Part shown: one piece after another, positions 1 through 9,734 of the stretch | How positions within the stretch are numbered: position 1 is the first letter of the stretch | How the letters are laid out: every line of letters begins with the position of its first letter | Assembly (NCBI GenBank): GCA_026981635.1 | Contig: JALSIF010000258.1 | Coordinates: forward strand, 1 to 11,969 | Source of the DNA: a bacterium | GTDB lineage: Bacteria > 4484-113 > JALSIF01 | Reading direction: 5' to 3' | DNA: 11,969 bases | Position numbers and translations under genes: made by a program | The notes under the pieces: generated by a model | Seen by the model: only the letters and a program-made list of their open reading frames with translations | Databases searched by the model: none | What the model was told of the DNA's origin: nothing

Positions 1-1148
1 AGCCGGTGGAGAAGGGAGACCTTTCCATCCTGGTACAGGCAACCGGCACGGTTGAACCCATTGACCTGGTCAAGGTGAAGGCGGAGGCCTCCGGCAAGAT
101 CGTGGAGATGAACGTGGAGGAGGGCCAGTTCATTGAAGCGGGGACGGTGATTGCCCGCCTTGACCAGACCGACCAGCGCATCGCCCGCGACCGGGCCAAG
201 GTAGCGGTGGAGCTGGCCAGAAAGGAGCTTGAACGCATCCGCCAGGGGCAGAACCCGGCCAACCTGCGCGCGCTGGAGAATGCGGTGGAGACCGCCCGCC
301 TCAACCTGAAGAACGCCCGCGACAGCTATGAGCGGATAAGAGAGCTCCACGAGCAGGGTTACGCCAGCGACCAGGAACTTGACAATGCCAAGCACCAGCT
401 ATCCCTCGCCGAGGAGCAGCTTAAGAAGACAGAAGAGGACCTGCGCCAGGCCCAAAGCTTTGACCTCAGGCAGGCGGAGAGGCTGGCTGAACTAAGGCTC
501 AAGGACGCCCTACTGGCCCTGGATCAGGCTGAACGCCAGCTGGGCAAGTCAACCGTCATCGCCCCCATCTCGGGGACCATACTCAAGAAGTTCGTCAGCG
601 AAGGAGACACCGTGCAGTCCTCCCTCTCCAGTTTCACCGAGGGAACCACCATCGTCACCATGGCAGACCTAACCGCCATCCAGGTGAGGGCCGATGTGGA
701 TGAGGTGGACATCGGGAGGGTAAAGCCCGGCCAGCGGGTGGAGGTCTCAAGCGACGCCTACCCAGGAGAGGTCTTCCCCGGCAAGGTCAAGCGGGTGCTC
801 CCCCAAGGGAAAAACATCCAGGGGCTGGTGAGCTTTGAGGTGATCATTGAGCTTGAAAATCCCGAACTTAAGCTCATGCCGGGAATGACGGTTGACTGCG
901 ACATCTACGCCGAGGAGCTGAAGGACGTACTGCTGGTTCCCTTTGAGGCAGTGAGGGCTGACGAGGACGACAACCCCATCGTCTATGTGTGGAGCGACGA
1001 GGGCAAGGAACCGGAGAAGCGCAGGGTGGAACTCGGCGCAACCGACTACGAAAAGATCCAGATCATCAGCGGAGTGAAGGAGGGGGAGCTGGTCCAGGTG
1101 GAGCACCTGCCCGAAACCCTCACCCTGAGCTTCACCGCCGGGGGCTAG
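1..1148 (+). CDS. Periplasmic adaptor of a MacA/HlyD-type export system, 5'-partial
   Basis: Membrane-fusion adaptor that would link an inner-membrane ABC permease to an outer partner or to the envelope. The visible part (numbered from the GTG at base 6) has a lipoyl-like half at about 25-55, a long Glu/Lys/Arg/Gln-rich alpha-helical hairpin at about 56-180, the second lipoyl half with the APISGTI motif (186-192), then beta-barrel and membrane-proximal regions ending in VPFEAVR and SGVKEGELV. This order is typical of MacA/HlyD adaptors. The reading frame is open to the window edge, and the first residues (GDLSILVQATGTVEP) match the stretch that normally follows the N-terminal membrane anchor. 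The GTG at base 6 is therefore probably internal, and the signal/anchor lies upstream of the window. The stop is TAG. It is followed after 34 bp by two permease genes, which supports a MacAB-like system. The substrate cannot be told. Confidence 0.9.
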   Translation, partial: PVEKGDLSILVQATGTVEPIDLVKVKAEASGKIVEMNVEEGQFIEAGTVIARLDQTDQRIARDRAKVAVELARKELERIRQGQNPANLRALENAVETARLNLKNARDSYERIRELHEQGYASDQELDNAKHQLSLAEEQLKKTEEDLRQAQSFDLRQAERLAELRLKDALLALDQAERQLGKSTVIAPISGTILKKFVSEGDTVQSSLSSFTEGTTIVTMADLTAIQVRADVDEVDIGRVKPGQRVEVSSDAYPGEVFPGKVKRVLPQGKNIQGLVSFEVIIELENPELKLMPGMTVDCDIYAEELKDVLLVPFEAVRADEDDNPIVYVWSDEGKEPEKRRVELGATDYEKIQIISGVKEGELVQVEHLPETLTLSFTAGG

Positions 1149-1182: not shown

Positions 1183-2517
1183 ATGAAGAGAGCGAAGCCA
1201 ACCGGTCCAACCGCTGGCCTCCTAGGTCTTCTTATCAGGAGCCTGGCGGTGGGCAGGTTCACCCTCACCATCGCCGCCCGCAACCTCACCGCCAACCCCA
1301 TGCGTAGCCTGCTCACCTCCCTCGGGCTTCTCATCGGGGTCTCCGGGGTGATCGCCATCGTGGCGGTGGGCGAAGGGGTCAAGGCCTACTTCCGCAGAGA
1401 GCTCAGTCAGCTAGGAAGCAATTTAATGTTTATAATACCCCAAGCAGAAATGGAAGAAGGAAGACTGCTCCAAGTGGCAAAAAAATTTAAGAATGAAGAT
1501 ATTAATTTTTTAAATTTAAACTCAACCACAACTCTAATTGTCTATGGAGCTAGCCAAACTGAGGTACTGGTAAGAGCTAAAGGAAGAAGTCGAAATGTAG
1601 ATATAACTGGTGGAAATCCAGTTAGTGCCGAAGTACTTGATCTTAAATTTTCTCATGGTAGGATGTTTAACCACAGCGAACACCGCAACCGGGCTAAAGT
1701 AGCCGTTTTAGGGAACAAAGTTAAGCAGTGGCTCTTTCCTGGGGTTAGAGACCCAGTGGGTGAGACGATAAGAATCAAGGGGGTCAATTTCAAGGTTATC
1801 GGGGTGGTAAAGCCCCGCGGTCGCATCGGGGGTTCTCCGGATTGGGACAGAATCATATTTATCCCTCTGCCCACCTTTCAGGCCTACATCTCGGGCAAGG
1901 ACGAGGTGGAGTGGATTACTGCGGCGACCAAAACTCCCGAGGAGCTGGGGGTTTCCTCCAACCGGGAAGCCATCAAACTGGCCGAGGCAGAGCTGACCCG
2001 TCTGCTCAGGGTTAAGCGAAAGATTAAGAACCCCTCCAAGGATGACTTTCTCATCCTCACTCCGACCGATTTCCTGGAGTTTGGCGACACCTTCTTCAAC
2101 ATCCTCATCATAGTCTTCGGGGTGGTGGCCATGGTGGCGCTGGTAGTGGGCAGCATCGGGATCATGAACATGATGCTGGTCTCGGTGAGTGAGCGCACCC
2201 GCGAGATCGGGCTGCGCAAGGCGCTGGGGGCTACCCGGCGAAGCATAGTCCTCCAGTTCCTGCTGGAGACCTCCTTCCTTACCCTGACCGGCGGCCTGCT
2301 GGGTCTGCTGGTTGGCTACGCCGCCGGCGAGCTGCTCTCCCTGTGGCTCTCCAGCACCGGCATCTTCTCCGGTGAAGACATCTTCCACGCCGCCATCCCC
2401 CTGCCCTACATCCTCATCACCCTGGGGGTCTCGGTGAGCGTAGGCATCGGGGCAGGCATCTGGCCAGCCATCAAGGCGGCCACCTTGGACCCCATTGAGG
2501 CGCTGAGGTACGAATAG
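1183..2517 (+). CDS. MacB/FtsX-type ABC transporter permease (first of a tandem pair)
   Basis: Inner-membrane permease of 444 aa without an ATP-binding domain; full MacB has an N-terminal ATPase and is about 650 aa. One membrane helix lies at about 44-66. A large extracytoplasmic MacB_PCD-like domain spans about 67-300. Three C-terminal helices lie at about 304-335, 353-388 and 407-430. The cytoplasmic loop ERTREIGLRKALGA (337-350) and the end PAIKAATLDPIEALRYE are family hallmarks. The ATG at 1183 is the first usable start in frame, with only a weak purine stretch upstream. The next gene is a paralogue 7 bp downstream. Bases about 1421-1680 (residues about 80-166) are far more AT-rich than the rest and use rare-looking codons (TTA, ATA, AAT, AGA), although the frame is intact. 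An ATPase partner must be encoded upstream of the window or elsewhere. Confidence 0.92.
   Translation: MKRAKPTGPTAGLLGLLIRSLAVGRFTLTIAARNLTANPMRSLLTSLGLLIGVSGVIAIVAVGEGVKAYFRRELSQLGSNLMFIIPQAEMEEGRLLQVAKKFKNEDINFLNLNSTTTLIVYGASQTEVLVRAKGRSRNVDITGGNPVSAEVLDLKFSHGRMFNHSEHRNRAKVAVLGNKVKQWLFPGVRDPVGETIRIKGVNFKVIGVVKPRGRIGGSPDWDRIIFIPLPTFQAYISGKDEVEWITAATKTPEELGVSSNREAIKLAEAELTRLLRVKRKIKNPSKDDFLILTPTDFLEFGDTFFNILIIVFGVVAMVALVVGSIGIMNMMLVSVSERTREIGLRKALGATRRSIVLQFLLETSFLTLTGGLLGLLVGYAAGELLSLWLSSTGIFSGEDIFHAAIPLPYILITLGVSVSVGIGAGIWPAIKAATLDPIEALRYE
1421..1680. other. AT-rich mosaic block inside the first permease gene
   Basis: By hand count, GC is about 36% over 1441-1680 (86 of 240 bases). It is about 70% at 1321-1380 and about 62% at 2101-2160. 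The left edge is sharp (about 1415-1425). The right side climbs through about 50% (1681-1800) before returning to normal by about 1801. The block stays in frame and encodes residues about 80-166 of the extracytoplasmic domain. Codon choice changes with it (ATA, TTA, AAA, AAT, AGA, GTA). This is what an intragenic recombination with a low-GC homologue would look like, but relaxed selection on a variable domain cannot be excluded. Confidence 0.75.
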
Positions 2518-2524
2518 CTAGCCA

Positions 2525-3874
2525 ATGGGCGGGAAAAAGCGGCAGCGGGAAAGCACTGACTCCCCGCCGGGGGGTGGATCGGGCCGCCGGTTGGGCACCC
2601 TATTTGCCACCCAAGCCATCCTCATAGACAACCTGCGCATCTCCCTGGAAAGTCTCTTTCGCAATCGCCTGAGGAGCTTTCTCACCCTGCTTGGACTCTT
2701 TATCGGGATCGGGGCGGTGGTTACCATCATGAGCGCCGGCGAAGGACTTAAAAACTACTTCCGCAGCTACACCGAAAAGATCGGTGAAAACACCCTCTAC
2801 GCCATCCCTGCCCGCATCTCCCTGAGTGGCCGGATCAACCGGGAGGCCAAGGCCTTCAAGCTGAGGGATGTGGCCTTCCTGAAAAACAACGCCACCACCC
2901 TGAAGCAGGTGGAGGGCCTGGCCATGGGTCAGACCACCGTCAAGTTCCACAATAGGACCCGCCTCTACCCAGTCTTTGGCGTTGAATCAAGCTTCTGGGA
3001 CTTTGAACAGATTGATATCGTCAGGGGGAGAAACTTCAACCCCGGCGAGATGAAGAGTGCTGCCCGGGTGGTCATCCTGGGCAGCAAGGTGCCCGAAGAC
3101 CTCTTCCCCGAGAACCTTGACCCCGTAGGTGCCTCCATCAAGATCGGCGGCGAGGACTACCTCGTGGTGGGCCTGCTGGAAGAGGTAGGACAGCGGGGCT
3201 CCTTCAACGTGGACAAGAGCCTCTACCTTCCCCTCTCCACCGTCCAGCAGAGGATTCTGGGCAGCGACGAGATAGTCACCATCTACCTCAAGACCAAGTC
3301 CCCCGAGCAGCTGGGGGTCTCAACCTCCAAGCAGGCGGTGGAGCTGGCCAAGGCAGAGGTGACCCGCTTGCTGCGCATCTCACGACGCATCAGAGACCCC
3401 TCCAAGGACGACTTCATCGTCATGGACATCGCCGCCTTCGTTGACTTCGCAACTCAGTTTGTCAGCGTATTAGTAATCGTTTTCGGGGTCATCGCACTCA
3501 TTGCTTTGATTGTGGGGGGGGTGGGAGTCATGAACGTGATGCTGGTATCAGTAACCGAACGGGCGCGAGAAATCGGCCTGCGCAAGGCCATCGGCGCCCA
3601 CCCGCTGGTCATCATGACCCAGTTTCTGCTGGAGGCGGGCATCCTCTCCCTGGGCGGAGGGCTGGGGGGAATCATCCTGGGCTATCTGGGGGGTTGGGGG
3701 CTGGCCGCCTTCCTCAGCAACCTGCCCGGGGTGACCGAGCAGATCGTTCCCGCCATTCCTCTGGATCAGGCCCTGCTTGCCACCGGGATTGCGGTGGCGG
3801 TGGGCATCATCTTTGGCACCTGGCCAGCGGTAAGGGCCGCCCGGCTTGACCCGGTAGTAGCGCTGAGAAACTAG
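2525..3874 (+). CDS. MacB/FtsX-type ABC transporter permease (second of a tandem pair)
   Basis: Inner-membrane permease of 449 aa, clearly paralogous to the gene just upstream and again lacking an ATPase domain. A polar Lys/Arg/Gly-rich N-terminus (1-24) precedes the first helix (about 52-73). The extracytoplasmic domain spans about 75-308, and helices lie at about 311-342, 364-398 and 414-434. The signature loop ERAREIGLRKAIGA is at 345-358 and the end is AVRAARLDPVVALRN. A stretch at 259-297 (SPEQLGV...DPSKDDF) is nearly the same as residues 251-289 of the first permease, although the rest of the extracytoplasmic domain has diverged. The two may act as a heterodimer. A GAGGTA about 14 bases upstream is a possible but distant ribosome binding site; a TTG at codon 23 is an alternative start. 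Its TAG stop overlaps the stop of the convergent hydrolase gene. Confidence 0.92.
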   Translation: MGGKKRQRESTDSPPGGGSGRRLGTLFATQAILIDNLRISLESLFRNRLRSFLTLLGLFIGIGAVVTIMSAGEGLKNYFRSYTEKIGENTLYAIPARISLSGRINREAKAFKLRDVAFLKNNATTLKQVEGLAMGQTTVKFHNRTRLYPVFGVESSFWDFEQIDIVRGRNFNPGEMKSAARVVILGSKVPEDLFPENLDPVGASIKIGGEDYLVVGLLEEVGQRGSFNVDKSLYLPLSTVQQRILGSDEIVTIYLKTKSPEQLGVSTSKQAVELAKAEVTRLLRISRRIRDPSKDDFIVMDIAAFVDFATQFVSVLVIVFGVIALIALIVGGVGVMNVMLVSVTERAREIGLRKAIGAHPLVIMTQFLLEAGILSLGGGLGGIILGYLGGWGLAAFLSNLPGVTEQIVPAIPLDQALLATGIAVAVGIIFGTWPAVRAARLDPVVALRN

Positions 3875-9647: not shown

Positions 9648-9659
9648 GCAATGGAAAAG

Positions 9660-9734
9660 TCGGGGAGGCGGGATTCGAACCCGCGACCTCCAGCACCCCA
9701 TGCTGGCGCGCTAACCTGGCTGCGCCACTCCCCG
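9660..9734 (-). tRNA. tRNA-Pro (anticodon GGG)
   Basis: On the minus strand the 75-base sequence folds as a full cloverleaf. The acceptor stem is CGGGGAG/CTCCCCG. The D stem is GCGC/GCGC. The anticodon stem CCAGC/GCTGG holds the loop ATGGGGT, giving anticodon GGG (reads CCC/CCU). The T arm is GCGGG-TTCGAAT-CCCGC. The discriminator is A. The 3' CCA is not encoded (the next bases are CTT), so a CCA-adding enzyme is needed. It lies downstream of panB and converges on the OsmC-like gene. Confidence 0.97.

What the first reader, a model, noticed from the sequence alone, without database searches (positions are those of the whole stretch)
1421..1680. AT-rich in-frame block inside a GC-rich permease gene
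Seen: GC drops abruptly from about 70% to about 36% and codon choice switches (ATA, TTA, AAA, AGA), yet the reading frame is unbroken and family motifs on both sides are intact. The block encodes part of the extracytoplasmic domain (residues about 80-166), the part most likely to touch substrate or the adaptor. The neighbouring paralogue has no such block. Inference: a domain-sized recombination from a low-GC homologue, which could change specificity.
Basis: partly seen in the sequence, partly recalled or inferred. Interest (0 to 1): 0.6.

Follow-up and report, generated by a model that had tools for sequence, protein, structure and literature searches.

The report
AT-rich mosaic patch in MacB-type permease
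One 255-base stretch in the middle of a GC-rich bacterial transporter gene is written in AT-rich synonymous codons with sharp edges, most likely a small patch copied from an AT-rich version of the same gene; it is real and striking but of a known, ordinary kind, and it has not visibly changed the protein.

Summary
Confirmed: W1 (1183-2517), a MacB-type ABC permease in a metagenome-assembled genome (MAG) of about 63% GC, holds an in-frame AT-rich block. Third-codon-position GC (GC3) is 0.93 before it, 0.19 inside (codons 75-159, nt 1405-1659), 0.67, then 0.89. Both edges are sharp to a few codons. None of the other 125 aligned homologues, including the tandem paralogue and all nine class relatives, has it; it is the strongest intragenic GC3 drop among 399 genes scanned.

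The shift is mostly synonymous: amino-acid composition is ordinary. The block protein is typical of its class, its best hits among 385 genomes are class relatives and its own paralogue, and its tree matches the rest of the gene (weakly; 84 columns). So a foreign, specificity-changing domain is not supported. The block is not a domain: it covers the first Porter beta-alpha-beta unit and only the first third of the Sabre subdomain.

Best reading: a roughly 255-bp replacement from an AT-rich allele of the same gene lineage. In-situ shift and chimeric assembly remain open; no donor and no reads were available. Five other genes here carry internal AT-rich stretches (6/491 genes, against 1/246 in a GC-matched control). 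Ordinary mosaicism.

The parts
1183..2517 (+). W1: MacB-type (type VII) ABC transporter permease, 444 aa
   Evidence: Pfam MacB_PCD 3.5e-37 and FtsX 1.1e-20; phmmer 5nik_J MacB 4.6e-47; model matches 5xu1_M Z 28.9, rmsd 5.7 over 385 residues
1405..1659 (+). AT-rich in-frame block, codons 75-159, GC3 0.19; end of stalk helix, first Porter beta-alpha-beta unit and first third of Sabre subdomain
   Evidence: change-point fit; GC3 contrast with homologues; model secondary structure; MacB mapping
1570..1659 (+). most extreme part of the block, codons 130-159, GC3 0.03, directly before the right edge
   Evidence: six-segment change-point fit
1660..2082 (+). intermediate stretch, codons 160-300, GC3 0.67
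   Evidence: change-point fit
2525..3874 (+). W2: tandem paralogue of W1 (about 43% identical), GC-rich throughout
   Evidence: Pfam; alignment; GC3 0.71-0.89 in all segments
3..1148 (+). HlyD/MacA-like membrane fusion (adaptor) protein, cut off by the contig start
   Evidence: Pfam HlyD_D23 6.9e-28

Best explanation
W1 is an intact-looking MacB-type permease whose codons 75-159 (about 255 bp) were replaced by homologous recombination with an AT-rich allele of the same gene lineage, from an unsampled relative; the frame and the protein family features were kept, so the visible effect is at silent sites. Shown: the AT-rich block, its sharp edges, its uniqueness among homologues, its mostly synonymous nature, its class-typical protein. 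Inferred: that it arrived by recombination, and that the donor was a relative with AT-rich genes. The codons after it (160-300, GC3 0.67) may be a second, older or partly overwritten tract (inference).
For: Edges sharp to a few codons on both sides, with GC3 0.03 directly before the right edge. Third-position make-up of the block (A 0.43, T 0.34) matches whole AT-rich genes elsewhere in the same genome that look acquired, and A and T both rise, against a one-strand deamination process. 125 homologues have no such contrast. Block protein hits same-class genomes and the paralogue first and its tree agrees with the rest of the gene, as expected of a donor from the same lineage. Both edges keep frame and homologous position. 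Five other genes of this genome hold internal AT-rich segments.
Against: No donor is known: no same-class homologue examined is AT-rich (GC3 about 0.6-0.9), and no DNA match exists in plasmids or phages. Some other AT-rich segments in this genome slope gently rather than having sharp edges, which recombination explains less well. A GC-matched control replicon also has one such gene, so no special process is needed. The phylogenetic signal of 84 columns is weak.
Confidence: 0.55

Rival explanations
1. The block arose in place: silent sites of an inherited segment drifted to A and T through local mutation bias, relaxed or altered codon selection, or lack of GC-biased conversion, without any donor.
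For: Protein is class-typical and its tree agrees with the rest; amino-acid composition ordinary; several other genes show gently sloping GC3 valleys; one such gene in the control replicon.
Against: Edges are sharp to a few codons and the lowest GC3 (0.03) lies right at the right edge; neither the paralogue nor any of the other homologues shows a comparable dip at the same place.
Confidence: 0.2
2. Chimeric assembly: the contig of this MAG joins reads of a GC-rich and an AT-rich organism.
For: The genome is a fragmented MAG (317 contigs, 85% complete) and the window is one whole contig; no reads were available.
Against: A random join would not preserve frame and homologous position at both edges, over only 255 bp; no repeats lie in or beside the block; six unrelated genes show internal AT-rich segments; sequences this different in codon use offer no long identical stretch for a mis-join (inference).
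Confidence: 0.13
3. One reading: a domain from a distant low-GC homologue was swapped in and changes substrate or adaptor specificity.
For: The segment lies in the extracytoplasmic domain, which contacts the adaptor in MacB (PMC5985334); AU tests do not exclude placing the W1 block with outside sequences (p 0.12-0.18).
Against: Best hits are same-class; block tree joins W1 to W2 at 92/74; the block stops inside the Sabre subdomain; this region is the least conserved one in nearly every homologue compared.
Confidence: 0.08

Closest known systems
psbA of Synechococcus myoviruses: patchy GC through intragenic recombination (PMC3900582, citing Zeidner 2005 and a PLoS Biology 2006 paper)
   Same: One gene with internal patches of different GC; in psbA most of the GC difference lies at third codon positions
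   Different: There donors and recipients are sampled and phages carry the gene; here no donor is known and no phage copy was found
Within-gene lateral transfer in E. coli-Shigella: 678 of 5282 gene sets (12.8%) with internal breakpoints (PMC3212841)
   Same: Recombination tracts that end inside genes
   Different: Detected by tree conflict within a species; here by base composition, without tree conflict
MacB (E. coli 5NIK, A. actinomycetemcomitans 5LIL), type VII ABC transporter permease
   Same: Fold, membrane layout, Porter and Sabre subdomains
   Different: W1 has no fused ATPase domain and sits in a tandem pair of permeases after an adaptor gene; class relatives also have two or three permeases in a row

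Membership tests
MacB-type (type VII) ABC permease | MacB_PCD and FtsX domains | tested here: met
   Pfam 129.1 and 74.3 bits, above cut-offs
MacB-type (type VII) ABC permease | large extracytoplasmic Porter/Sabre domain between first and second membrane helix, then further helices | tested here: met
   model elements; 3ftj Z 22.3, rmsd 2.4 over 210 residues; 5gko_A Z 21.8, rmsd 5.6 over 399
MacB-type (type VII) ABC permease | partner ATPase and adaptor | tested here: inconclusive
   adaptor-like gene upstream; no ATPase gene recognised in the window, but the contig starts inside the adaptor gene
Intragenic recombinant (mosaic) gene | abrupt compositional breakpoints inside one gene | tested here: met
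   change-point fit
Intragenic recombinant (mosaic) gene | conflicting phylogeny of block and flanks | tested here: inconclusive
   no conflict seen: W1 is sister to W2 in both trees; but power is weak, and conflict is not expected if the donor is from the same lineage
Intragenic recombinant (mosaic) gene | an identified donor or an unreplaced sister allele | tested here: inconclusive
   no donor in 385 genomes by protein, plasmids, phages or viral contigs; no genus or family relative held

The most novel reading that the evidence does not exclude
This lineage has a process that repeatedly turns short internal stretches of genes AT-rich (W1, a ClC channel, a sodium/calcium exchanger, a NosD-like protein and others) while the protein is kept, through frequent short-tract exchange with an unsampled AT-rich sister lineage or a local silent-site mutation process.
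Probability: 0.07. Interest if true: 0.5.

Novelty: new member of a known kind. Interest (0 to 1): 0.2.

Why it matters
It is a clean example of a sub-gene mosaic patch visible by codon choice alone, with edges that can be placed to a few codons. It also warns against reading a GC island inside a gene as a foreign, function-changing domain: here the protein is typical of its own class and only the silent sites look foreign. If the other internal AT-rich stretches in this genome share the cause, they would point to an unsampled AT-rich relative that exchanges short DNA tracts with it.

Tried and rejected
Contigs under 3 kb of the MAG read as N and were left out. The genome-contig scan gave only distant MacB relatives, mostly Alphaproteobacteria and Rickettsiales MAGs, no close one. 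A shift in amino-acid make-up (sign of a long AT-rich ancestry) was sought and not found: FYMINK 0.29 against 0.265 +/- 0.043, GARP 0.22 against 0.285 +/- 0.039. Strand-specific deamination was considered: A3 and T3 both rise. Tract flanked by repeats or an insertion remnant: no repeats in 1300-1900. Hidden RNA gene: Rfam finds only a tRNA at 9660-9734. Copy of the block elsewhere in the genome: none. Identities by segment first hinted that the block leans to family f2 and the flanks to f4; the trees did not bear this out, and AU tests are indecisive with 84 columns. Viral contigs and plasmids gave no relative of the block.

Full report
What is there. The window is one whole contig (C258) of a metagenome-assembled genome of 1.75 Mb in 317 contigs, 85% complete; the stretches read here have about 63% GC. 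Genes 3-1148, 1183-2517 and 2525-3874 on the + strand are a HlyD/MacA-like adaptor and two tandem MacB-type permeases, W1 and W2. Relatives of the same class carry two or three such permeases in a row.

W1 has an in-frame stretch of AT-rich codons. A change-point fit on GC3 gives 0.93 (codons 18-74), 0.19 (75-159), 0.67 (160-300), 0.89 (301-444). Codons 130-159 have GC3 0.03. Shuffling synonymous codons within the gene 20,000 times never gave an 80-codon minimum below 0.44, against 0.175 observed. The slow rise of total GC after 1660 is not a blurred edge but a separate stretch of intermediate GC3.

It is local and unique. In an alignment of 126 homologues the GC3 difference between this block and the rest is -0.61 in W1 and -0.007 +/- 0.056 in the others, none below -0.15; this includes W2 and all nine class relatives. 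Among 399 genes of the same genome it is the largest drop.

It is mostly a silent change. Amino-acid composition of the block is within the range of homologues. Lys, Glu and Gln codons end in A in 13 of 15 cases inside against 8 of 40 outside; two-fold pyrimidine codons end in T in 16 of 19 against 9 of 42. A and T both rise (0.43 and 0.34), as in whole AT-rich genes of the same genome such as a DpnII-type restriction enzyme and a class II glutamine amidotransferase.

The protein is not foreign to its class. A search with the block alone over 385 genomes returned class relatives (E 8e-7 to 4e-5) and the own paralogue W2 (3e-6) ahead of any outsider (2.6e-4). It carries a short-loop signature (P..PMEPGR, then K.FKN.DI) shared with one permease group of class family f2. 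The tree of the rest of the gene pairs W1 with W2 (95/89), next to that f2 group; the tree of the block does the same (92/74). With 84 columns other placements are not excluded (AU p 0.12-0.24), so this is agreement, not proof.

Where it lies in the protein. An AlphaFold2 model (mean pLDDT 80.7, about 90 for most of the block) shows membrane and stalk helix 39-77, then strand 81-86, short strands 89-97, helix 104-113, strands 117-132 and 135-144, and strand 156-159 at the right edge. By alignment to A. actinomycetemcomitans MacB (a 20-residue offset between sequence and entry numbering is inferred from these two calls) the block corresponds to about residues 301-384. Published limits are Porter 306-346 and 466-503, Sabre 347-465 (PMC5985334). 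So it starts at the Porter boundary but stops inside the Sabre: not a domain. In MacB this domain does contact the adaptor (same paper), so an effect is possible, but this is the least conserved segment in nearly every homologue compared (12-29% identity to W1) and nothing marks W1 out.

It is not alone in the genome. With one penalised segmentation applied to all genes of 200 codons or more, 6 of 491 genes (735 kb) have an internal low-GC3 segment: W1, a ClC channel, a sodium/calcium exchanger, a NosD-like protein and two more (names). The same method found 1 of 246 in 400 kb of Sinorhizobium meliloti pSymB (62% GC). Numbers are too small to claim an excess. The exchanger and ClC blocks keep normal similarity to class orthologues. 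Their GC3 valleys are gentler than W1's.

Explanation. A short replacement by recombination from an AT-rich allele of the same gene lineage accounts for the sharp edges, the kept frame, the class-typical protein and the foreign-looking silent sites. The donor is unseen: no AT-rich member of the class was found among those examined, and no DNA or protein match was found in plasmids, phages or viral contigs. In-place drift of silent sites and chimeric assembly are the main rivals; the edges speak against the first, the kept frame at both edges against the second. Patchy GC through intragenic recombination is known, for example in cyanophage psbA (PMC3900582), and breakpoints inside genes are common (12.8% of gene sets in E. 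coli-Shigella, PMC3212841).

Verdict. Observation confirmed; interpretation partly supported; a new example of a known kind; low interest.

Noticed in passing
L210:6696-8525 (contig C244): ClC channel with CBS domains has an internal low-GC3 stretch (codons 162-372, 0.36; neighbours 0.97 and 0.87), in frame, protein still class-typical.
   Followed up: partly
L172:8022-9176 (contig C291): Sodium/calcium exchanger gene with GC3 0.79, 0.36 (codons 69-278), 0.82, sloping edges.
   Followed up: partly
L230:3-1850, L239:986-3982, L143:3307-4746: Three more genes with internal low-GC3 segments; L143 is NosD-like, the L230 one is short (29 codons, 0.24).
   Followed up: no
L157:1113-2479 (contig C275): AT-rich tract covers the second half of a DNA methylase gene and a whole DpnII-type restriction enzyme gene, ending near the latter's stop codon.
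   Followed up: no
L114:6079-7170 (contig C1): AT-rich (GC3 0.26) gene at a contig end without a Pfam match; looks CRISPR-associated by eye only.
   Followed up: no
L230:4967-5749 (contig C15): Whole AT-rich gene for a class II glutamine amidotransferase (GC3 0.32) in the GC-rich genome.
   Followed up: no
window 9659-9734, - strand: tRNA-Pro (GGG anticodon).
   Followed up: no
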